A DNA stretch of 64,000 nucleotides, taken from Changchengzhania lutea (GTDB taxonomy: Bacteria > Bacteroidota > Bacteroidia > Flavobacteriales > Flavobacteriaceae). The notes under the pieces were generated by a model. The model made no database searches and had not been told where the DNA came from. It saw only the letters and a program-made list of their open reading frames with translations. The DNA is taken from the NCBI RefSeq assembly GCF_006974145.1, contig NZ_CP039456.1, positions 248,001 through 312,000 of the forward strand. The letters are read 5' to 3'. The position numbers were made by a program, and so were the translations under genes. Positions 1,123 to 21,770 of the stretch are shown here, in pieces (position 1 is the stretch's first letter; the number at the start of each line of letters is the position of its first letter).

Positions 1123-1929
1123 TTAAATAGCTTGTCTTATGGTTTTTAATGAATTATTTGAAACGTGGTAATATATTTCCGTGGTCTTTGTGTTTTGGTG
1201 CCCCATTGATTTTGAAAGTGGAGCGAGTTCAGTTCCGTTGTCAAGGGCGTATGTAGCGAAACTATGCCTAAGAAAATGGAAAGATGCTTTTTGGTGTATG
1301 TGCTTTTTAACGATTCGCTGAATACTTGATTGAGAGTATTTATTTTTAAACTGTCCATTAAACACATAATCTTTAGGTTTATATTGCTTCCAATATTCTG
1401 TTAACAGATCAATCATGTTGTCGTTTAGAATGGTTGTACGGTCTTTTCGTCCTTTTCCGTTGATTACAGTCAAGGTGTTTCTTTTCCGGTCAAGGTGCTC
1501 CCATTTTAGATTTATGACCTCGGATATGCGCAACCCACAGCTTAGACCAAGAGATAAAATAGCCTTATGTTTTAAATTATTTATTTTGTTTATTTTTTCT
1601 GCTAATAATTCAGCATCAATAATCTTTGGCAACTTCTTTTCTTTCCTGGGTCTGACAATGTTTAAAGTATTTAACTTTCTGCCAACAACATTTATATAAA
1701 GAAATTTAACTGAACTAATAATTTGGTTTTGTTGCGATATCGAGGTGTAAGGATATGATTCTAAATAATTTTCAGCTTCTTTAACCGAAATATGATATAC
1801 ATCCTTATTGAAACTAATTAAGAACTTTTCAGAGTAACTAAGATAAGTTTTTATAGTCTGTTCAGAATAGTTTCTAAACCTCAATTTTTTTTCTAACTTT
1901 TCGAGAGTTGACTTGCTTTTTTTGTTCAT
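1123..1929 (-). CDS. Tyrosine recombinase (XerC/IntI-like)
   Basis: 268 aa with an N-terminal SAM-like core-binding domain (about 1-85) and a C-terminal catalytic domain. The catalytic set is visible: Arg134 in GLRISEV, HxxR at 218-221 in FHFLRHSFAT, Gly-His at 243-244 and the nucleophile Tyr253 or Tyr254 in EIYYHVS. Before the catalytic domain is the stretch RPRKEKKLPKII, which resembles the equivalent part of integron integrases, but the extra helix insert that marks true IntI is not obvious and the protein is shorter than IntI (about 320-340 aa). It sits one gene downstream of the attC-like cassette array, so it could act on those sites; it could equally be the island integrase or a phage resolvase. 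Confidence 0.9.
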   Translation of the reverse strand: MNKKSKSTLEKLEKKLRFRNYSEQTIKTYLSYSEKFLISFNKDVYHISVKEAENYLESYPYTSISQQNQIISSVKFLYINVVGRKLNTLNIVRPRKEKKLPKIIDAELLAEKINKINNLKHKAILSLGLSCGLRISEVINLKWEHLDRKRNTLTVINGKGRKDRTTILNDNMIDLLTEYWKQYKPKDYVFNGQFKNKYSQSSIQRIVKKHIHQKASFHFLRHSFATYALDNGTELAPLSKSMGHQNTKTTEIYYHVSNNSLKTIRQAI

Positions 1930-3099: not shown

Positions 3100-4954
3100 A
3101 TTGAGTAGACGGGTGACGACTTAAAAGTCGTCACTGCGCCTCTCACACCACCGTACGTACGGGTCTCGTATACGGCGGTTCACCAAATTGAAGTTTGCGT
3201 ATTATTAATGTAATCTAACAAAGGTTTATACCCTTTTCGTTTAAGTCTAGAGACTGTAATAGTAGTCTTTAGAATAGGACTTTGAGCAACTGCCCAGCCT
3301 CCCATTCTTGTTCTACTCCAAGCATAGGCTTGTCCGATTTCTATACCTAATTGAATTAGGTTTTTACGTTTCCGTTCTAGTTTCTTCCAATCGTGCCAAA
3401 TACAATAGCGCAACCGATTTCTTAGCCACTCATCTAGCTTTTTACTTTTTGCATAGATGTTGGTTAAGCGGTAATTGTTCATCCAGCCTCGGCAGACTTG
3501 ATTAAGTCGTTCGAGTCGTTCTAACAACGACATGGGTTTGGTTTTCTTGGTTATACTTTTTAGGTTACGTTTAAACTTTGCCCAACTTTTATTGGCTACC
3601 ACTAGTACATATTGTCCTTTTACACCCTTTTTATAGATGGGTACAAAACCATGCCCGAGTAACTCAAAGTTTACAGGTCTGCGGATGCCACTTTTGGCTT
3701 TGTTTATAGGTAATTTAAGTTTATCTTTTAAGAAGACAAACAGTCTATTTCCTATTTGTTTAGCCTCGCTTTTGCTTTTGGCGTAAACGCTAAAATCATC
3801 AGCGTAGCGAACATAACGCAAGCCCATGCTTTTCATTTCTTTGTCCAAAACATCTAACATAATATTAGATAATAAGGGACTAATTGGACTGCCTTGCGGG
3901 ATGCCTTTTCTGCGCTTTTGGAGTTTTCCATCTATTAATATGGGAACTCTAAGCCATTTTCGGATTAATCGCAAAGTGGTCGGACATTTTACCTTGTGGT
4001 AAATAAGTTGCAGTAAGATACAGTGGTCTACTTGGTCAAAGAATCCTTCTAAATCAATATCTACAATATCTTGATAACCAGAATTGATATACGTTTGAGC
4101 TTGTAATACTGCTTTTTGGATGTTCTTTTGTGGACGGAAACCGTAACTAACGGGTTCAAAATCATATTCAAAATGAACCATTAATTGTTGACTTACCGCT
4201 TTTTGAAGCCACCTATCGACTACAGTTGGTATTCCTAATAGTCGGGTTTTACCCTGTCCTTTTGGAATGGTTACTCCTAATATTGAATTTGGATTATAGC
4301 TGTTTGTGCGAATAGTCGATAGTATAGTCGAACGGTTTTCTAATATATAAGCGGAAAGCTCCGTTGTTTTCATACCATCTACACCGCTCGCGCCTTTATT
4401 GCGCTCCACTTGTCGTGTTGCTTTAAAAAGGTTTGTTGCTGATAATACGTTTTCAATCATAGGTTTAATAATTCGTGTACTCCTGTTGGTTTAAAACTAG
4501 GCTAGCTAGGCATCCTAATCGAATTCCAACGTAATTTAATGTTCTGTCCTTCCCTACTTGTGAGACCATCTGAGGTATTGCCTCAACTCGTTTCCCGTAG
4601 GTACTATGACCTCTGCTGACTTCTCCAAATAACCAACTCGTAGTTTTGGAGACCTCCCCAGGTAATGACATCTTCTTTCTCTCAATCACTGCCGTATCTA
4701 CATATTTACCCTTTTGGTGTTCGTTGGGCGTTACAATGATGTGCTTGCTTACCCAAGTAAATATGCCTCTGTATACGATTTCTGTTCGTCAGTACCGAGT
4801 TTTGTAGTTCCGCTTCCTTCAGATAGAACCTCACGGTTTTCACCCTTGCGACTTACTAATGCTTCAAGACGTTACTCCTGTACATAAGGGACTTGCACCC
4901 TCTAGATTAATTATTTACCTTTCCGTAAATAAAAGATGCCCATGCTGGGCACAC
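3100..4954 (-). mobile_element. Group II intron, class IIC-like, copy 1 (1,855 bp)
   Basis: On the minus strand the intron starts GTGTGCCCAGC, fitting the GUGYG 5' consensus, and ends CTACTCAAT, fitting the AY 3' end. Boundaries were set by comparing the flanks of three copies. Domain V lies at 3147-3179: two 9-nt arms, a 2-nt CG bulge and a 4-bp upper stem, with catalytic triad CGC before CGTAT, as in class IIC rather than the usual AGC. The hairpin at 3115-3132 is domain VI. It is inserted in the R' core (GTGT^TACC) of an attC-like site in the leader of the methyltransferase gene, so splicing would restore that leader. Confidence 0.9.
3180..4460 (-). CDS. ltrA: Group II intron reverse transcriptase/maturase, copy 1
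   Basis: 426 aa. The reverse transcriptase domain spans about residues 10-300, with YGFRP at 106-110, PQGSPISP at 188-195 and the catalytic YADD at 219-222; the maturase (X) domain follows at about 325-420. There is no HNH endonuclease domain, as in class IIC proteins, which rely on single-stranded or hairpin DNA targets. The protein would help the intron RNA splice and copy it into new DNA sites. The stop codon abuts domain V. Its sequence is identical to copies 2 and 3, indicating very recent spread or homogenisation. Confidence 0.95.
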   Translation of the reverse strand: MIENVLSATNLFKATRQVERNKGASGVDGMKTTELSAYILENRSTILSTIRTNSYNPNSILGVTIPKGQGKTRLLGIPTVVDRWLQKAVSQQLMVHFEYDFEPVSYGFRPQKNIQKAVLQAQTYINSGYQDIVDIDLEGFFDQVDHCILLQLIYHKVKCPTTLRLIRKWLRVPILIDGKLQKRRKGIPQGSPISPLLSNIMLDVLDKEMKSMGLRYVRYADDFSVYAKSKSEAKQIGNRLFVFLKDKLKLPINKAKSGIRRPVNFELLGHGFVPIYKKGVKGQYVLVVANKSWAKFKRNLKSITKKTKPMSLLERLERLNQVCRGWMNNYRLTNIYAKSKKLDEWLRNRLRYCIWHDWKKLERKRKNLIQLGIEIGQAYAWSRTRMGGWAVAQSPILKTTITVSRLKRKGYKPLLDYINNTQTSIW

Positions 4955-5268: not shown

Positions 5269-7123
5269 ATTGAGTAGACGGGTGACGACTTAAAAGTCGT
5301 CACTGCGCCTCTCACACCACCGTACGTACGGGTCTCGTATACGGCGGTTCACCAAATTGAAGTTTGCGTATTATTAATGTAATCTAACAAAGGTTTATAC
5401 CCTTTTCGTTTAAGTCTAGAGACTGTAATAGTAGTCTTTAGAATAGGACTTTGAGCAACTGCCCAGCCTCCCATTCTTGTTCTACTCCAAGCATAGGCTT
5501 GTCCGATTTCTATACCTAATTGAATTAGGTTTTTACGTTTCCGTTCTAGTTTCTTCCAATCGTGCCAAATACAATAGCGCAACCGATTTCTTAGCCACTC
5601 ATCTAGCTTTTTACTTTTTGCATAGATGTTGGTTAAGCGGTAATTGTTCATCCAGCCTCGGCAGACTTGATTAAGTCGTTCGAGTCGTTCTAACAACGAC
5701 ATGGGTTTGGTTTTCTTGGTTATACTTTTTAGGTTACGTTTAAACTTTGCCCAACTTTTATTGGCTACCACTAGTACATATTGTCCTTTTACACCCTTTT
5801 TATAGATGGGTACAAAACCATGCCCGAGTAACTCAAAGTTTACAGGTCTGCGGATGCCACTTTTGGCTTTGTTTATAGGTAATTTAAGTTTATCTTTTAA
5901 GAAGACAAACAGTCTATTTCCTATTTGTTTAGCCTCGCTTTTGCTTTTGGCGTAAACGCTAAAATCATCAGCGTAGCGAACATAACGCAAGCCCATGCTT
6001 TTCATTTCTTTGTCCAAAACATCTAACATAATATTAGATAATAAGGGACTAATTGGACTGCCTTGCGGGATGCCTTTTCTGCGCTTTTGGAGTTTTCCAT
6101 CTATTAATATGGGAACTCTAAGCCATTTTCGGATTAATCGCAAAGTGGTCGGACATTTTACCTTGTGGTAAATAAGTTGCAGTAAGATACAGTGGTCTAC
6201 TTGGTCAAAGAATCCTTCTAAATCAATATCTACAATATCTTGATAACCAGAATTGATATACGTTTGAGCTTGTAATACTGCTTTTTGGATGTTCTTTTGT
6301 GGACGGAAACCGTAACTAACGGGTTCAAAATCATATTCAAAATGAACCATTAATTGTTGACTTACCGCTTTTTGAAGCCACCTATCGACTACAGTTGGTA
6401 TTCCTAATAGTCGGGTTTTACCCTGTCCTTTTGGAATGGTTACTCCTAATATTGAATTTGGATTATAGCTGTTTGTGCGAATAGTCGATAGTATAGTCGA
6501 ACGGTTTTCTAATATATAAGCGGAAAGCTCCGTTGTTTTCATACCATCTACACCGCTCGCGCCTTTATTGCGCTCCACTTGTCGTGTTGCTTTAAAAAGG
6601 TTTGTTGCTGATAATACGTTTTCAATCATAGGTTTAATAATTCGTGTACTCCTGTTGGTTTAAAACTAGGCTAGCTAGGCATCCTAATCGAATTCCAACG
6701 TAATTTAATGTTCTGTCCTTCCCTACTTGTGAGACCATCTGAGGTATTGCCTCAACTCGTTTCCCGTAGGTACTATGACCTCTGCTGACTTCTCCAAATA
6801 ACCAACTCGTAGTTTTGGAGACCTCCCCAGGTAATGACATCTTCTTTCTCTCAATCACTGCCGTATCTACATATTTACCCTTTTGGTGTTCGTTGGGCGT
6901 TACAATGATGTGCTTGCTTACCCAAGTAAATATGCCTCTGTATACGATTTCTGTTCGTCAGTACCGAGTTTTGTAGTTCCGCTTCCTTCAGATAGAACCT
7001 CACGGTTTTCACCCTTGCGACTTACTAATGCTTCAAGACGTTACTCCTGTACATAAGGGACTTGCACCCTCTAGATTAATTATTTACCTTTCCGTAAATA
7101 AAAGATGCCCATGCTGGGCACAC
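5269..7123 (-). mobile_element. Group II intron, class IIC-like, copy 2 (1,855 bp)
   Basis: Same length as copy 1 with the same ends (GTGTG at the 5' end, CAAT at the 3' end), offset by 2,169 bp throughout, and I saw no base differences. Domain V is at 5316-5348. It is inserted at GGTGT^TAGCAG, the core of attC-like site E, which here lies inside an open frame: the 125 nt of 5' exon from the ATG at 7248 and the 253 nt of 3' exon sum to 378 nt, a whole number of codons. The host frame would therefore be rebuilt by splicing. Confidence 0.9.
5349..6629 (-). CDS. ltrA: Group II intron reverse transcriptase/maturase, copy 2
   Basis: 426 aa, identical in sequence to the proteins at 3180-4460 and 7647-8927: reverse transcriptase with YADD at 219-222 followed by a maturase domain and no endonuclease domain. 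It is encoded inside intron copy 2, starts about 490 nt from the intron 5' end and ends at domain V. With three intact copies any one can supply protein for the others, so maturase supply does not limit mobility. Confidence 0.95.
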   Translation of the reverse strand: MIENVLSATNLFKATRQVERNKGASGVDGMKTTELSAYILENRSTILSTIRTNSYNPNSILGVTIPKGQGKTRLLGIPTVVDRWLQKAVSQQLMVHFEYDFEPVSYGFRPQKNIQKAVLQAQTYINSGYQDIVDIDLEGFFDQVDHCILLQLIYHKVKCPTTLRLIRKWLRVPILIDGKLQKRRKGIPQGSPISPLLSNIMLDVLDKEMKSMGLRYVRYADDFSVYAKSKSEAKQIGNRLFVFLKDKLKLPINKAKSGIRRPVNFELLGHGFVPIYKKGVKGQYVLVVANKSWAKFKRNLKSITKKTKPMSLLERLERLNQVCRGWMNNYRLTNIYAKSKKLDEWLRNRLRYCIWHDWKKLERKRKNLIQLGIEIGQAYAWSRTRMGGWAVAQSPILKTTITVSRLKRKGYKPLLDYINNTQTSIW

Positions 7124-7566: not shown

Positions 7567-9421
7567 ATTGAGTAGACGGGTGACGACTTAAAAGTCGTCA
7601 CTGCGCCTCTCACACCACCGTACGTACGGGTCTCGTATACGGCGGTTCACCAAATTGAAGTTTGCGTATTATTAATGTAATCTAACAAAGGTTTATACCC
7701 TTTTCGTTTAAGTCTAGAGACTGTAATAGTAGTCTTTAGAATAGGACTTTGAGCAACTGCCCAGCCTCCCATTCTTGTTCTACTCCAAGCATAGGCTTGT
7801 CCGATTTCTATACCTAATTGAATTAGGTTTTTACGTTTCCGTTCTAGTTTCTTCCAATCGTGCCAAATACAATAGCGCAACCGATTTCTTAGCCACTCAT
7901 CTAGCTTTTTACTTTTTGCATAGATGTTGGTTAAGCGGTAATTGTTCATCCAGCCTCGGCAGACTTGATTAAGTCGTTCGAGTCGTTCTAACAACGACAT
8001 GGGTTTGGTTTTCTTGGTTATACTTTTTAGGTTACGTTTAAACTTTGCCCAACTTTTATTGGCTACCACTAGTACATATTGTCCTTTTACACCCTTTTTA
8101 TAGATGGGTACAAAACCATGCCCGAGTAACTCAAAGTTTACAGGTCTGCGGATGCCACTTTTGGCTTTGTTTATAGGTAATTTAAGTTTATCTTTTAAGA
8201 AGACAAACAGTCTATTTCCTATTTGTTTAGCCTCGCTTTTGCTTTTGGCGTAAACGCTAAAATCATCAGCGTAGCGAACATAACGCAAGCCCATGCTTTT
8301 CATTTCTTTGTCCAAAACATCTAACATAATATTAGATAATAAGGGACTAATTGGACTGCCTTGCGGGATGCCTTTTCTGCGCTTTTGGAGTTTTCCATCT
8401 ATTAATATGGGAACTCTAAGCCATTTTCGGATTAATCGCAAAGTGGTCGGACATTTTACCTTGTGGTAAATAAGTTGCAGTAAGATACAGTGGTCTACTT
8501 GGTCAAAGAATCCTTCTAAATCAATATCTACAATATCTTGATAACCAGAATTGATATACGTTTGAGCTTGTAATACTGCTTTTTGGATGTTCTTTTGTGG
8601 ACGGAAACCGTAACTAACGGGTTCAAAATCATATTCAAAATGAACCATTAATTGTTGACTTACCGCTTTTTGAAGCCACCTATCGACTACAGTTGGTATT
8701 CCTAATAGTCGGGTTTTACCCTGTCCTTTTGGAATGGTTACTCCTAATATTGAATTTGGATTATAGCTGTTTGTGCGAATAGTCGATAGTATAGTCGAAC
8801 GGTTTTCTAATATATAAGCGGAAAGCTCCGTTGTTTTCATACCATCTACACCGCTCGCGCCTTTATTGCGCTCCACTTGTCGTGTTGCTTTAAAAAGGTT
8901 TGTTGCTGATAATACGTTTTCAATCATAGGTTTAATAATTCGTGTACTCCTGTTGGTTTAAAACTAGGCTAGCTAGGCATCCTAATCGAATTCCAACGTA
9001 ATTTAATGTTCTGTCCTTCCCTACTTGTGAGACCATCTGAGGTATTGCCTCAACTCGTTTCCCGTAGGTACTATGACCTCTGCTGACTTCTCCAAATAAC
9101 CAACTCGTAGTTTTGGAGACCTCCCCAGGTAATGACATCTTCTTTCTCTCAATCACTGCCGTATCTACATATTTACCCTTTTGGTGTTCGTTGGGCGTTA
9201 CAATGATGTGCTTGCTTACCCAAGTAAATATGCCTCTGTATACGATTTCTGTTCGTCAGTACCGAGTTTTGTAGTTCCGCTTCCTTCAGATAGAACCTCA
9301 CGGTTTTCACCCTTGCGACTTACTAATGCTTCAAGACGTTACTCCTGTACATAAGGGACTTGCACCCTCTAGATTAATTATTTACCTTTCCGTAAATAAA
9401 AGATGCCCATGCTGGGCACAC
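7567..9421 (-). mobile_element. Group II intron, class IIC-like, copy 3 (1,855 bp)
   Basis: Third copy, offset 4,467 bp from copy 1, with the same length, ends and domain V (7614-7646); I saw no base differences. The insertion point is GGTGT^TGTAAAT, again the core of an attC-like site whose inner arms form a hairpin directly upstream, as class IIC introns require. A candidate EBS1 (AACACC, near 9183-9188 on the plus strand as ggtgtt) could pair with the 5' exon GGTGT; copies 1 and 2 carry the same sequence. Confidence 0.9.
7647..8927 (-). CDS. ltrA: Group II intron reverse transcriptase/maturase, copy 3
   Basis: 426 aa, identical to the other two intron-encoded proteins in this window. Reverse transcriptase motifs are intact, including YADD at 219-222 and PQGSPISP at 188-195, followed by a maturase domain rich in Trp and Arg; no endonuclease domain. 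The intact frame in all three copies argues that they arrived recently or are kept identical by recombination between the 1.85-kb direct repeats. Confidence 0.95.
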   Translation of the reverse strand: MIENVLSATNLFKATRQVERNKGASGVDGMKTTELSAYILENRSTILSTIRTNSYNPNSILGVTIPKGQGKTRLLGIPTVVDRWLQKAVSQQLMVHFEYDFEPVSYGFRPQKNIQKAVLQAQTYINSGYQDIVDIDLEGFFDQVDHCILLQLIYHKVKCPTTLRLIRKWLRVPILIDGKLQKRRKGIPQGSPISPLLSNIMLDVLDKEMKSMGLRYVRYADDFSVYAKSKSEAKQIGNRLFVFLKDKLKLPINKAKSGIRRPVNFELLGHGFVPIYKKGVKGQYVLVVANKSWAKFKRNLKSITKKTKPMSLLERLERLNQVCRGWMNNYRLTNIYAKSKKLDEWLRNRLRYCIWHDWKKLERKRKNLIQLGIEIGQAYAWSRTRMGGWAVAQSPILKTTITVSRLKRKGYKPLLDYINNTQTSIW

Positions 9422-18850: not shown

Positions 18851-19204
18851 TTATGCAGTTATCTGATATCTTGCTCTATTTGTCATAGAACGCGATACTC
18901 TTACCGTTTTCCTTTGACGTTGTTCTACATTTATTTTTCTTGGCATAAGAATTAAACATTGTGCAAATACAAATAATATTACTATCATAATTTTATAAAA
19001 CCCTTTAGGATTTTCCAAAGACAAAACAAACATTGCTGATAAATGAGCTAATGTTCTTGCACCAGATTTTTTTTTACTTTTTTTAATATGCGTATCAACA
19101 GTCGATGGAGATATAAATAATCTAGTTGCAGCTTCTTTAACCGTATATCCTTTAGATATTTCGGCAACAACTTCATTTTCTCTGTTAGTTAATAGTTCTA
19201 TCAT
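18851..19204 (-). CDS. LuxR-type HTH protein with a transmembrane segment
   Basis: 117 aa. Residues 1-50 are a LuxR/GerE helix-turn-helix (LTNRENEVVAEISKGYTVKE, then STVDTHIKKSKKKSG). A hydrophobic segment at about 69-87 (FYKIMIVILFVFAQCLIL) follows, then a very basic tail. It begins 146 bp from, and divergent to, the XRE repressor, the position of a lysis-lysogeny or early activator. DNA binding from the membrane would be unusual. Confidence 0.75.
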   Translation of the reverse strand: MIELLTNRENEVVAEISKGYTVKEAATRLFISPSTVDTHIKKSKKKSGARTLAHLSAMFVLSLENPKGFYKIMIVILFVFAQCLILMPRKINVEQRQRKTVRVSRSMTNRARYQITA

Positions 19205-19236: not shown

Positions 19237-19287
19237 TTTGTAACATTCATAGTTTTTTGTTACTTTGGTTTGTAATACAATACAAAT
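19237..19287 (+). promoter_or_regulatory. Promoter and operator of the XRE repressor
   Basis: TTTG (19237-19240), 20-nt spacer, TACTTTG (19261-19267), a good Bacteroidota promoter. Positions 19255-19287 are identical to 20804-20836. The palindrome TTTGTAATACAATACAAA lies over the expected start site and is a likely repressor operator shared by both promoters. Confidence 0.65.
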
Positions 19288-19296
19288 ATAAAATCA

Positions 19297-19335
19297 ATTG
19301 CATTATTCTGCAAGTTTTTATTGCAATATTTTGCA
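19297..19335 (+). promoter_or_regulatory. Two direct repeats in the repressor leader
   Basis: ATTGCATTATTCTGCA (19297-19312) and ATTGCAATATTTTGCA (19320-19335), 23 bp apart. The shared TGCA-spaced-TGCA layout suggests an autoregulatory operator between promoter and start codon. Confidence 0.45.
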
Positions 19336-19350
19336 TTTAAATTTAAAATA

Positions 19351-19788
19351 ATGTTTAATAGGCTTAAAATCAAGGAAATAAGAGAAGCTAAAAACTTAAC
19401 TCAAGATGATATCGTTAGGCTTTCTGGTATACCAAAACGAAGTTATAACGATTATGAGAGCGGAAAAACAGACATACCATCCTCAAGGTTGCAGCATATT
19501 GCAAAAGCCTTAGATGTAACGGTCGGTGTTATTTTTGGATTTAGTGATCCAGAAACTAGAGAAGGGTATGAGGATATGGTTTTTAAAGATTTCAATAAAT
19601 ATAAACCTGTTTTAGTTGATGATAGTAAAGCAAGCCTTAAGCATAGTGAAGATATACAAACAATAGATGATATGGTTTACTTAAAAGTTTTAGAAGTATT
19701 AAAACCGTATTTAAATAAAATCGAATTACAAGACGCTAAATTAGCAGAACTAGTTACTAGGTTGGGGTTGGTCGAAGAAAAAGTTTAA
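19351..19788 (+). CDS. XRE-family phage repressor
   Basis: 145 aa from ATG 19351 (MFNRLKIKEIREAKNLTQDD). A classical HTH_3 domain covers residues 4-60 (LTQDDIVRLSGIPKRSYNDY, then the ESGKTDIPSSRLQHIAKALD region), followed by a helical C-terminal half without a LexA-type peptidase signature. It is transcribed divergently from the leftward early genes, the normal place for a CI-like repressor. The two operator types upstream suggest it controls itself and the promoter at 20786. Confidence 0.85.
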   Translation: MFNRLKIKEIREAKNLTQDDIVRLSGIPKRSYNDYESGKTDIPSSRLQHIAKALDVTVGVIFGFSDPETREGYEDMVFKDFNKYKPVLVDDSKASLKHSEDIQTIDDMVYLKVLEVLKPYLNKIELQDAKLAELVTRLGLVEEKV

Positions 19789-19949
19789 TCGTTTACTTTG
19801 TCAATAGATTCTATAAAAACAGAAGTTAGTATTTTAATTTTTTCTGAACATTGAGTTAATAATCCTTTTCTAATTGTGTTTCTTTCTTCGGTCGTAAATT
19901 TATCTTTATTCTCCTCAAACCAAATAGCTTTTTTAAGTAAGTTACTCAT
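19785..19949 (-). CDS. Small ORF (54 aa), unknown
   Basis: ATG 19949, 54 codons, helical and charged (MSNLLKKAIWFEENKDKFTT). It overlaps the end of the upstream membrane gene by 8 nt and converges on the repressor gene with a 4-nt overlap. Probably part of a three-gene minus-strand unit with the membrane protein and lipoprotein; no family recognised. Confidence 0.45.
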   Translation of the reverse strand: MSNLLKKAIWFEENKDKFTTEERNTIRKGLLTQCSEKIKILTSVFIESIDKVND

Positions 19950-20346
19950 ATTTGGTCCCCTTTCTTTTTAAATAAAAATAAAGTAGTATAATTAAAAAAA
20001 CTATACCAAAATTCACTAATACTTTTACACTAACACCATTAACAGCATGTTTTCGATTATTTAAAATATTAATAAACAATTGAAAAACTAACATAATTAA
20101 AGGCGCTAACATTACAAACCTGTACTGCTTTCCTTTACTATTAATAAATGCAAAAATCCAACCTGAAATAGCTACAACATACATTGAGACGAAAAACAAG
20201 CCCATACGAAGAGAAGAATAACCACTAAAGCCATCCTTCTCATTAAAAAAAGTAAAATCGTGTATATAAGGTAAAAACGATATTAGAACTATTAATATCG
20301 CTATTAATAAATTATATATCCGTTTCTTTTGGTTCGTCTTTTTCAA
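19942..20346 (-). CDS. Four-helix membrane protein, unknown
   Basis: 134 aa with four hydrophobic segments (about 10-27, 48-68, 76-95 and 107-126) and a basic tail. No family recognised. It lies inside the immunity region on the opposite strand to the repressor, with a lipoprotein gene in front, which suggests a lysogenic conversion or superinfection-exclusion role; that is inference from position. Confidence 0.65.
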   Translation of the reverse strand: MKKTNQKKRIYNLLIAILIVLISFLPYIHDFTFFNEKDGFSGYSSLRMGLFFVSMYVVAISGWIFAFINSKGKQYRFVMLAPLIMLVFQLFINILNNRKHAVNGVSVKVLVNFGIVFLIILLYFYLKRKGTKYE

Positions 20347-20446
20347 TCTGAACTTCTTCTTGATTTAAATCTTGTTTAGTACAAGAAGTTAATCCAATTG
20401 CAAAAACCATTAAGGTTAATGCAAAAACTTTTGTAAGCTTTTTCAT
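20312..20446 (-). CDS. Small lipoprotein (44 aa)
   Basis: ATG 20446. Signal peptide and lipobox are clear (MKKLTKVFALTLMVFAIGLT, then SC), giving a mature peptide of only about 22 acidic residues. It overlaps the start of the membrane protein gene by 35 nt in another frame. A tiny surface lipoprotein encoded in a prophage immunity region is often linked to exclusion, but nothing in the sequence proves it. Confidence 0.6.
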   Translation of the reverse strand: MKKLTKVFALTLMVFAIGLTSCTKQDLNQEEVQIEKDEPKETDI

Positions 20447-20785
20447 TTGATAAAAATTTAAGGTTAATAGATTCCTTTGTTTACCAAATAACTTTACTTA
20501 AATATGTTCGTTGGATTAACTACTTTATTGCTATTAATTATTACAAAGAGGGAATAATTATAAAGCATTTAATACTTTATAAATCTAGGAAATATTCTTT
20601 TAACAAAACTGTGGTTTAACCACAATATTTTCTGTGGTTAAACCGTATTTAATCCAATAATAGAGAAATAACCGACAAACTATACAACTTTCTTACATTT
20701 TTTCGATGAAATACACCTTTTTTAACAATGTTCATATAACATTTGATATCATCATCCCTTTTTTTAGGTATTTTATGTTTCCCGT

Positions 20786-20836
20786 TTTGTTTAGAAACTA
20801 TTATTTTGTTACTTTGGTTTGTAATACAATACAAAT
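20786..20836 (+). promoter_or_regulatory. Second copy of the repressor-type promoter
   Basis: TTTG (20786-20789), 20-nt spacer and TACTTTG (20810-20816), with 33 nt (20804-20836) identical to the repressor promoter, including the palindromic operator. It drives the gene at 20842 with a leader of only about 20 nt. The 380 bp to its left hold no convincing gene, only AT-rich DNA with a TGTGGTT/AACCACA repeat near 20610-20650. Confidence 0.65.
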
Positions 20837-20841
20837 GTACA

Positions 20842-21372
20842 ATGAAAAGAATTTTGTTATTCTTTGTGATTCCTTTTTTTATTTTAAGTTCTTTCGTTTC
20901 TTATTGCCAAAATGAAGGATTTTATTACCCTAATGGTGATTTAATTTCTAAAAACATTGATCAATCAATTAACAGTATTTTAGAATTACACTTTCCAGAC
21001 ATAAATCAGATAACAGTTCATTCAAAAAGCTGTGATAATTATGAGGTGGTTTTTAAAAAATTTACTGAAACAACGCTATTTGTTTTAGGGGAATTCCCTA
21101 AATCTAAACGATCATTAAAAAAGTGCATTGAAGCCTATAACGTTATTAATGATTACTCAAGAGAATCTTTTAAGTCAACTCTTGATGATCTAATAGAAAA
21201 AAGCGAAGGCAGCAAACAAGTGTTCAATATATTTGGAAACCCACAAAGAGAAACAATATATAAAGAGTTAGGAAGTGAAATAACAATTTATAATTACAAC
21301 AAGTATTATGGAACCGTGAAGTTTGATCTAATATTTGAGAATGATAAACTGATTAGATATATAAAATATTGA
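20842..21372 (+). CDS. Secreted protein, unknown (prophage immunity region)
   Basis: 176 aa from ATG 20842 (MKRILLFFVIPFFILSSFVS signal peptide, cleavage probably before QNEG). A longer frame from 20743 passes through the promoter and is rejected. The mature part has two Cys residues and a mixed alpha/beta pattern; family not recognised. Because its promoter carries the repressor operator, it is likely co-regulated with the repressor and expressed in the lysogen. Confidence 0.7.
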   Translation: MKRILLFFVIPFFILSSFVSYCQNEGFYYPNGDLISKNIDQSINSILELHFPDINQITVHSKSCDNYEVVFKKFTETTLFVLGEFPKSKRSLKKCIEAYNVINDYSRESFKSTLDDLIEKSEGSKQVFNIFGNPQRETIYKELGSEITIYNYNKYYGTVKFDLIFENDKLIRYIKY

Positions 21373-21373
21373 T

Positions 21374-21688
21374 ATGGAAAATCAAATAGACTCTAAAATC
21401 TACATAAGTGACGAGCGCATGCTCTTGTTGATTGACATATTAAAAGCAAATAGCATTATCCGTTTTGATTCGGACTTTTGTGATTCTATCGGTTTACTAA
21501 GGCAGACCTTAACCAAAATTAAAAAAGGCGAGAAGCATTTTACTCCAGATCATATTAGAAATGTCATATTAGTTTATAAAGCTGATGCGAACTGGATATT
21601 CGGAATTGGAGACCAGATATTTTTAAACAAAAATTACAACAAACAGCATACTAAACCGAATACAAAAGATAAAATTTTAACCAATTAA
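21374..21688 (+). CDS. Small HTH-like protein
   Basis: 104 aa, 1 bp after the secreted protein gene and therefore co-transcribed. Residues 30-75 (SDFCDSIGLLRQTLTKIKKG, then HFTPDHIRNVILVYKADANWIFG) resemble an XRE-like helix-turn-helix without a strong canonical score. Last gene before the attachment site. Confidence 0.65.
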   Translation: MENQIDSKIYISDERMLLLIDILKANSIIRFDSDFCDSIGLLRQTLTKIKKGEKHFTPDHIRNVILVYKADANWIFGIGDQIFLNKNYNKQHTKPNTKDKILTN

Positions 21689-21725: not shown

Positions 21726-21770
21726 TTCATAACCCGGAGGTCGGGGGATCGTGCCCCCCTCTCGCTACCA
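21726..21770 (+). tRNA. tRNA 3'-end fragment, putative attachment site
   Basis: TTCATAACCCGGAGGTC resembles the anticodon loop and 3' anticodon stem of initiator tRNA-Met (CAT), followed by a GGGGG/CCCCC T-arm and TCTCGCTACCA acceptor end with encoded CCA. The 5' half is absent and the T-loop (ATCGTGC) lacks the usual TTCGA, so this is a non-functional copy. Integration at a tRNA 3' end leaves such a fragment at the far border; the intact tRNA should lie left of the window. Confidence 0.55.

What the first reader, a model, noticed from the sequence alone, without database searches (positions are those of the whole stretch)
19237..20836. Identical 33-bp promoter/operator duplicated in the immunity region
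Seen: 19255-19287 and 20804-20836 are identical and both are preceded by TTTG at the same 20-nt spacing, before the repressor gene and before a secreted-protein gene. The palindrome TTTGTAATACAATACAAA covers the expected start sites. Inferred: one regulon, with the secreted protein expressed under the lysogenic control circuit.
Basis: partly seen in the sequence, partly recalled or inferred. Interest (0 to 1): 0.6.

Follow-up and report, generated by a model that had tools for sequence, protein, structure and literature searches.

The report
Duplicated repressor promoter in a prophage
A dormant virus in a flavobacterial genome carries two copies of the promoter of its own "stay dormant" gene, the second placed before a gene for an exported protein, which suggests that this protein is made while the virus sleeps, as a similar gene next to the repressor seems to be in many related viruses.

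Summary
19255-19287 and 20804-20836 are identical over 33 bp, share a TTTG at the same upstream distance, and their core occurs only twice in the 4.13-Mb genome. They are two copies of one Bacteroidota-type promoter core (TTTG-N19-TTACTTTG) with a palindrome over the predicted start, at the attR end of a ~55.8-kb tailed prophage in a tRNA-Met gene. Homology between the copies covers about 100 nt, but only the -33 box and the -7/start block are identical.

Lysogenic control of the exported protein gains independent support: in related phages repressor, exported protein and a small HTH protein ("HTH2") are neighbours on one strand. 26 of 31 ORFs between repressor and HTH2 look exported, against 9 of 169 elsewhere in the same loci. 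In the window a three-gene cassette separates repressor and exported gene, and the exported gene has its own promoter copy.

That the XRE repressor reads the palindrome is not established. XRE's likely operators are TTGCA-N6-TGCAA, found in the leader of copy 1 and not near copy 2. The binder may be XRE or the divergent LuxR-type protein. New variant of a known kind (lambda cI-rexAB).

The parts
19237..19240 (+). -33 TTTG of P_RM (repressor promoter)
   Evidence: sequence; same offset in copy 2
19260..19267 (+). -7 box TTACTTTG of P_RM, predicted start about 19272
   Evidence: -7 consensus TAnnTTTG at -12 to -5 in F. psychrophilum (PMC9723704)
19255..19287 (+). 33-bp repeat, copy 1
19269..19286 (.). 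start-site palindrome TTTGTA-N6-TACAAA, copy 1
19283..19290 (-). -7 box TATATTTG of the leftward lytic promoter P_R, opposed to P_RM at 15 nt; predicted start about 19278
19311..19314 (-). -33-like CTTG of P_R, 20 nt from its -7 box
   Evidence: sequence; a CTTG overlapping an operator candidate also in L012
19298..19313 (.). XRE operator candidate TTGCATTATTCTGCAA
   Evidence: counterparts in L012
19321..19336 (.). XRE operator candidate TTGCAATATTTTGCAT (1 mismatch)
19351..19788 (+). CI-like XRE repressor, 145 aa, HTH_3; no S24 domain among the Pfam matches
   Evidence: (4.5e-12)
18851..19204 (-). LuxR/GerE-type protein with a hydrophobic C-terminal segment (by eye), first gene of the leftward operon (Cro position)
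   Evidence: 1.5e-11; relatives
19785..20446 (-). three-gene convergent cassette (54 aa, 129-aa membrane-type protein, 44-aa lipoprotein-like)
   Evidence: 67% DNA identity of 19698-20587 to L014
20786..20789 (+). -33 TTTG of copy 2 (P_sec)
20804..20836 (+). 33-bp repeat, copy 2; -7 box 20809-20816, predicted start about 20821
20818..20835 (.). start-site palindrome, copy 2
20842..21372 (+). exported protein, 176 aa, signal-peptide-like N-terminus, orphan
21374..21688 (+). HTH2, 104-aa small HTH-like protein, 1 nt after the exported gene
21733..21770 (+). attR: 3' part of tRNA-Met; attL at G000:C1:213983-214020

Best explanation
The two 33-bp copies are the core of one prophage maintenance promoter (P_RM), duplicated. 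SHOWN: copy 1 stands before the XRE repressor gene, copy 2 before an exported-protein gene followed at 1 nt by HTH2. Both keep TTTG-N19-TTACTTTG and a palindrome over the predicted start. SHOWN: in many related phages repressor, exported protein and HTH2 are neighbours on one strand. INFERRED: in the ancestor one P_RM transcribed repressor, exported protein and HTH2. A module (repressor tail plus a convergent three-gene cassette, shared with the element in L014) entered and cut the operon, and a retained or copied P_RM keeps exported protein and HTH2 on in the lysogen. INFERRED: the palindrome is an operator that lets one phage regulator turn both lysogenic promoters down together. The binder may be the divergent LuxR-type protein in Cro's position or XRE as a weaker third site; I now rate them equal (0.38 each). 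XRE probably holds the lytic promoter P_R through TTGCA-N6-TGCAA sites that copy 2 lacks. The exported protein probably acts at the envelope, for example in superinfection exclusion (inferred; no assay).
For: Duplicate core unique in the genome. In the ~100-nt homologous segment the differences spare the -33 box and a 33-nt block: spacer outside the block 4 of 14 identical, -33 4 of 4, block 33 of 33. Prophage with att sites, integrase, major head, portal, terminase, tape measure and endolysin. Gene order in relatives: L042 repressor-exported-HTH2-int; L052 repressor-HTH2-exported-int (its HTH2 matches the window's at 26%, 2e-6); G255/L063 repressor-exported-int. In 31 viral loci found by HTH2, 26 of 31 ORFs of 80 aa or more between repressor and HTH2 are signal-peptide-like against 9 of 169 elsewhere in the same loci (28 of the 31 loci used, L088, L089 and L091 left out as the same phage type as L087; L075 is the L042 contig). 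Module exchange: 19698-20587 matches L014 at 67% (3e-64), ending before copy 2; 19283-19504 matches L065 at 66% (1e-8). XRE operators.
Against: No expression or binding data. TTTG is a common word. Both copies could also be kept identical by gene conversion. The exported protein has no relative in 299 family genomes (E 1e-5), the phage collection or viral contigs at the sensitivities used, and is not detectably homologous to the L042 protein beyond the signal peptide, so the slot, not the protein, is conserved. Exceptions: order differs in L052; L093 and L105 carry no exported gene; the L087 type is ambiguous; RAP44 has a protein without a signal peptide in the slot (by eye); G002 has membrane-type proteins (by eye). 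No duplicated P_RM in five other loci with a long repressor-cargo gap. No LuxR remnant was found beside copy 2.
Confidence: 0.62

Rival explanations
1. One reading: the XRE repressor binds the palindrome at both promoters, as an OR3-like site, and so directly co-regulates repressor and exported protein.
For: TTGTA-N6-TACAA has the same 5-6-5 geometry as TTGCA-N6-TGCAA with one symmetric change. All 4 exact TTG[CT]A-N6-T[AG]CAA sites of the prophage lie in the immunity region; 0.73 expected over 55.8 kb.
Against: The combined motif was defined after seeing the sites, two of the four are the duplicate itself, and a third lies inside the XRE gene where conserved residues LQxIA may explain it. L012, with the related XRE, has no TTGTA-N6-TACAA with up to 1 mismatch. 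L100, whose repressor is of another type, has TTGTA-N7-TACAA at the same place.
Confidence: 0.38
2. The LuxR/GerE-type protein encoded divergently (Cro position) binds the palindrome and shuts P_RM and P_sec when the lytic operon is on.
For: TGTA-N6-TACA is the core of lux-box sites (recalled). L100, with a LuxR-type neighbour and another repressor, has a similar palindrome. The opposed -7 arrangement is found in 5 of 5 relatives whose LuxR-type gene is next to the repressor (L042, L052, L057, L100, L104) and in 4 of 23 HTH2 loci without a LuxR hit (p 0.001).
Against: TGTA or TACA between the opposed boxes: 6 of 7 switches with a LuxR-type gene, L104 being the miss, against 1 of 4 without (Fisher 0.09). 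An earlier count (6/6 against 1/5, 0.015) had placed L104 wrongly, because its LuxR gene was found only. Post hoc, related phages, no common long motif; the repressors are not all different (L057 and L100 are alike). The protein has a hydrophobic C-terminal segment and may not bind DNA freely.
Confidence: 0.38
3. The repeat is only a recombination joint (boundary sequence) between modules, without regulatory meaning at copy 2.
For: Both copies sit near edges of modules shared with other elements.
Against: Conservation follows promoter boxes rather than a continuous stretch, and copy 2 stands at a sensible distance before an ORF.
Confidence: 0.12
4. Chance similarity in AT-rich DNA.
For: None beyond AT richness.
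Against: 33 bp exact against a maximum of 17 in 300 simulated regions; 0 matches in 100 shuffles.
Confidence: 0.01

Closest known systems
Lambda cI-rexAB and Gordonia phage CarolAnn genes 43/44 with repressor 45
   Same: Accessory genes expressed with the repressor in lysogeny; CarolAnn 43/44 are co-expressed with the repressor and give defence (PMC6426606, passages).
   Different: Here the accessory gene encodes an exported protein and has a second copy of the repressor's promoter; no defence shown.
Gordonia phage Sbash genes 30/31
   Same: Lysogenic accessory genes with their own promoter (PMC6426606).
   Different: In the passages I saw no statement that Sbash's promoter is a copy of the repressor promoter.
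Phage P2 / 186 face-to-face repressor and early promoters (recalled)
   Same: Two opposed promoters at the switch with overlapping starts.
   Different: Here sigma-A boxes of the Bacteroidota type, 15 nt apart; relation of the proteins not tested.
P22 sieA, prophage-expressed exclusion (PMC10883804, start of abstract in a search listing)
   Same: Prophage-expressed superinfection exclusion, the likely kind of role.
   Different: No homology tested; function here is inferred from position only.
Hankyphage RepC of Bacteroides (PMC12135933, passages)
   Same: CI-like master repressor of a Bacteroidota temperate phage.
   Different: Transposable phage; no duplicated promoter in the passages I saw.

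Membership tests
Bacteroidota sigma-A promoter | -33 TTTG, about 19-20 nt, -7 TAnnTTTG | tested here: met
   TTTG-N19-TTACTTTG at both copies; 5 of the 6 fixed -7 positions match, A at position 2 does not; -7 consensus in PMC9723704, the -33 box recalled
Bacteroidota sigma-A promoter | transcription start 5 nt after the -7 box | not testable with these tools
   no RNA data
Repressor-linked lysogenic accessory operon (cI-rexAB type) | accessory gene next to repressor, same strand | tested here: met
   relatives L042, L057 and most HTH2 loci, L052 with HTH2 between; in the window same strand but separated by a convergent cassette
Repressor-linked lysogenic accessory operon (cI-rexAB type) | expressed in the lysogen | not testable with these tools
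   no expression data
Superinfection-exclusion protein | blocks superinfecting phage | not testable with these tools
   no Pfam match above cut-off, no PADLOC and no NCBIfam match at E 0.1
   one relative only: L012 shares TTGCA-N6-TGCAA, not TTGTA-N6-TACAA
P2/186-like face-to-face switch | opposed repressor and early promoters with overlapping starts | tested here: met
   by sequence: T...TTTG-N14/15-CAAA..TA only at 19260 and 20809 on the plus strand of 124 kb; 18 of 20,000 simulated 150-mers
P2/186-like face-to-face switch | homologous C/Cox or CI/Apl proteins | not tested
   no comparison with P2 or 186 proteins made

The most novel reading that the evidence does not exclude
Bacteroidota temperate phages share an unrecognised lysogeny operon, repressor - exported protein - HTH2, whose middle slot is a hot spot for envelope-acting exclusion or conversion proteins. 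In this prophage the operon was cut by an incoming module and kept under lysogenic control by a duplicated P_RM, with a LuxR-type, possibly membrane-anchored protein in Cro's place reading the start-site palindrome of both promoters.
Probability: 0.26. Interest if true: 0.7.

Novelty: new variant of a known kind. Interest (0 to 1): 0.5.

Why it matters
It turns a raw repeat into a testable rule: in these phages the gene slot between the repressor and HTH2 usually holds an exported protein, expected to be expressed in lysogens. That points to a set of uncharacterised exported prophage proteins, including the DUF4468-bearing one of L052, that could be screened for superinfection exclusion. It also gives a concrete case of promoter duplication that would keep an accessory gene in the lysogenic programme after module exchange, and a LuxR-type candidate for Cro's role.

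Tried and rejected
Operator elsewhere: the 18-mer with up to 1 mismatch has 28 places in 26 of 397 family genomes, the query's own two included, against 15 places for the reversed control pattern, and exact hits in 6 viral contigs. Of the 32 places outside the window, 8 form a T[AT]nnTTTG box with the pattern's own TTTG and one of these (L035) also has one just before. I did not annotate the genes behind them; nothing marks them as repressor promoters, and I treat them as unrelated, which is a judgement.

Sigma-70 scan: 20 sites against 21 expected, uninformative for this phylum.

Sequence relatives: XRE in viral contigs none, in genome contigs one locus by the C-terminal tail only, in 299 family genomes one besides itself at E 1e-12, in phages 8 weak HTH-type matches. 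Exported protein: none. Membrane protein of the cassette in viral contigs: none. HTH2 in 299 family genomes: only its own at E 1e-6.

AlphaFold of the exported protein: mean pLDDT 40, not used, no fold search made. A BamE-like C-terminus that I suspected by eye had no Pfam match for that part and is not claimed.

LuxR remnant left of copy 2: none. Promoter duplication in other phages with a repressor-cargo gap of about 200 nt (L079, L081, L085, L102, L103): longest shared words 9-11 nt, so none.

For that reason I lowered the LuxR reading from 0.45 to 0.38, raised XRE from 0.35 to 0.38, and lowered the novel case from 0.30 to 0.26. L058's LuxR gene is not next to its repressor: a 93-aa ORF and a 49-aa ORF lie between. 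L076's repressor start is uncertain, so its negative counts little.

Literature: searches listed no paper whose title or abstract start describes this operon or a duplicated P_RM in Bacteroidota. Five papers were opened, by passages only: PMC9723704, PMC7761591, PMC7077304, PMC12135933, PMC6426606. The library lacks most subscription journals.

Full report
Observation. The 33-bp identity at 19255-19287 and 20804-20836 is exact; its core is found twice in the window and twice in the genome, and is far beyond chance for the region (longest repeat 33 against at most 17 in 300 simulations). A TTTG stands 19 nt before TTACTTTG in both copies. With the flavobacterial -7 consensus TAnnTTTG at -12 to -5 (PMC9723704, passages seen), starts fall at about 19272 and 20821, inside TTTGTA-N6-TACAAA. 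In register, the copies are 22/32 identical upstream, 4/4 at the -33 TTTG, 4/14 in the part of the spacer outside the block, 33/33 in the block and 17/33 after it. Over 100 nt with 26 differences, 29 of 200,000 permutations give a run as long. The first difference after the block falls on an unconstrained position of the leftward -7 box (CAAATATA against CAAATGTA). This pattern is what two working copies under selection would leave; gene conversion is not excluded.

Setting. ARAGORN finds a tRNA-Met at C1:213944-214018. Its 3' part recurs with 1 mismatch at C1:269733-269770, window 21733-21770, which bounds about 55.8 kb. An integrase gene overlaps and follows the tRNA, and the interval holds endolysin, tape measure, major head, portal, terminase and DnaB-type helicase genes. 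The finding is about 1-2.5 kb from attR. To the left a LuxR/GerE-type gene starts the leftward operon; to the right lie the XRE repressor, a convergent cassette of three small genes, the exported-protein gene and HTH2.

The switch. Leftwards a TATATTTG box (19283-19290) faces P_RM's TTACTTTG at 15 nt, with CTTG at 19311-19314. The pattern T...TTTG-N14/15-CAAA..TA occurs on the plus strand only at 19260 and 20809 in the 124 kb searched (window, L003-L005) and in 18 of 20,000 simulated 150-mers. It is present in L042, L052, L057 and L058 and absent in L073, L053, L012, L014 and RAP44. Among 26 of the 31 viral HTH2 loci (L088, L089, L091, L093 and L105 not tested) 7 have it: L075 (the L042 contig), L090, L092, L094, L096, L100, L104; L076's repressor start is uncertain. 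Where a LuxR-type gene lies next to the repressor it is present in 5 of 5 relatives (L042, L052, L057, L100, L104), against 4 of 23 HTH2 loci without a LuxR hit (p 0.001). Where the LuxR-type gene lies further down the leftward operon, L058 has it and L053 and L073 do not. So it is a recurrent but not general face-to-face design. Copy 2 keeps both opposed -7 boxes but has no TTG at the -33 position for leftward transcription (read).

Which protein reads what. The XRE of genome G265 is 55% identical over the HTH region and 44% over the alignment, with GIPKRSY conserved; its DNA matches 19283-19504 at 66%. Both leaders carry TTGCA-N6-TGCAA sites (0 or 1 mismatch): the window at 19298 and 19321, L012 at 1700, 1723 and 1745, spaced 22-23 nt. 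In both a CTTG at the -33 place of the promoter that reads away from the repressor overlaps one site. L012 has no TTGTA-N6-TACAA with up to 1 mismatch. The palindrome differs from these sites by one symmetric base per half, so XRE may still bind it; all four exact sites of the widened motif lie in the immunity region, 0.73 expected in the prophage, but that motif was defined afterwards. Against XRE: L100, with another repressor type but a LuxR-type neighbour, has TTACTTTG-TTGTAATAACAGTA-CAAATATA. TGTA or TACA is found between the boxes in 6 of 7 switches with a LuxR-type gene (L104 is the miss) and in 1 of 4 without (Fisher 0.09). My first count was more favourable because L104's LuxR gene was not yet seen. 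I rate the LuxR-type protein and XRE equal, 0.38 each.

Why the exported gene has this promoter. HTH2 led to L042, where repressor, exported protein, HTH2 and integrase are adjacent. A LuxR search gave L052 (repressor, HTH2, exported protein, integrase; HTH2 match 2e-6) and G255 (repressor, exported protein, integrase). G408 has a lipoprotein-like gene as second gene after the repressor, and G265 one on the same strand after the XRE gene. G002 has a 103-aa and a 221-aa protein, membrane-type by eye, and RAP44 a protein without signal peptide in the slot. An HTH2 alignment found 31 viral loci. In 28 of them (L088, L089, L091 dropped as the same phage type as L087), 26 of 31 ORFs of at least 80 aa between repressor and HTH2 pass a simple signal-peptide rule, against 9 of 169 elsewhere in the same loci (p 3e-20). 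The rule is mine, not SignalP; the intervals were set by hand; loci are related, so the p-value overstates independence. L093 and L105 have no such gene, and the L087 type has small proteins that I regard as ambiguous. In the window the stretch 19698-20587 (repressor tail and cassette) is 67% identical to a contig of an Algibacter MAG, L014, whose repressor matches the window's only over residues 100-145. It ends about 170 nt before the homologous promoter segment of copy 2. The simplest story is that this module entered between repressor and exported gene, and that a second P_RM kept the exported protein and HTH2 in the lysogenic programme. The order of events is inferred.

Function. The exported protein is an orphan: nothing in viral contigs or phages and nothing in 299 family genomes besides itself, no Pfam match above cut-off, no NCBIfam or PADLOC match, an unusable AlphaFold model. 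Position and signal peptide suggest an envelope role such as superinfection exclusion or conversion, as for repressor-linked or prophage-expressed genes in other phages (PMC6426606, passages; PMC10883804, abstract start in a listing).

Verdict. Observation confirmed; lysogenic co-expression likely; the identity of the DNA-binding protein open. New variant of a known kind.

Noticed in passing
L005 7862-10015 (G000:C1:235862-238015), minus strand: A 717-aa minor-head-like protein seems to carry an intein-like insertion with an endonuclease-like part (read by eye; no family search made).
   Followed up: no
window 3180-4460, 5349-6629, 7647-8927, minus strand: Three identical 426-aa reverse transcriptase ORFs (group II intron type by eye; one copy searched, phrog_1423 4e-82) inside the prophage's early region.
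   Followed up: partly
window 1123-1929, minus strand: A second tyrosine recombinase of 268 aa inside the prophage, far from the att-side integrase.
   Followed up: no
window 20608-20644: Inverted repeat GGTTTAACC/GGTTAAACC upstream of the cassette (terminator-like); a similar GGTTAAACCGTA is seen upstream of the cassette in L014 around 5970.
   Followed up: partly
window 19489-19504; L012 1554-1569: An exact TTGCA-N6-TGCAA also inside both XRE genes, at codons for LQHIA and LQNIA; may be protein conservation or a real operator.
   Followed up: partly
L079, L081, L085, L102, L103: Related phages with a gap of about 200 nt between repressor and exported gene and no promoter copy in it; the spacer might hold another promoter or an RNA.
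   Followed up: partly
L014 2867-4444 and 4446-5147: A contig of an Algibacter MAG with a transposase-like ORF (by eye) has a repressor whose tail matches the window's while the N-terminal part does not: likely domain swap in a repressor.
   Followed up: partly
L039 and L040 (genomes G006 and G321): A one-mismatch copy of the 18-mer stands in a similar context before what looks by eye like the same host gene in two genera; unrelated to the prophage as far as I can tell.
   Followed up: no
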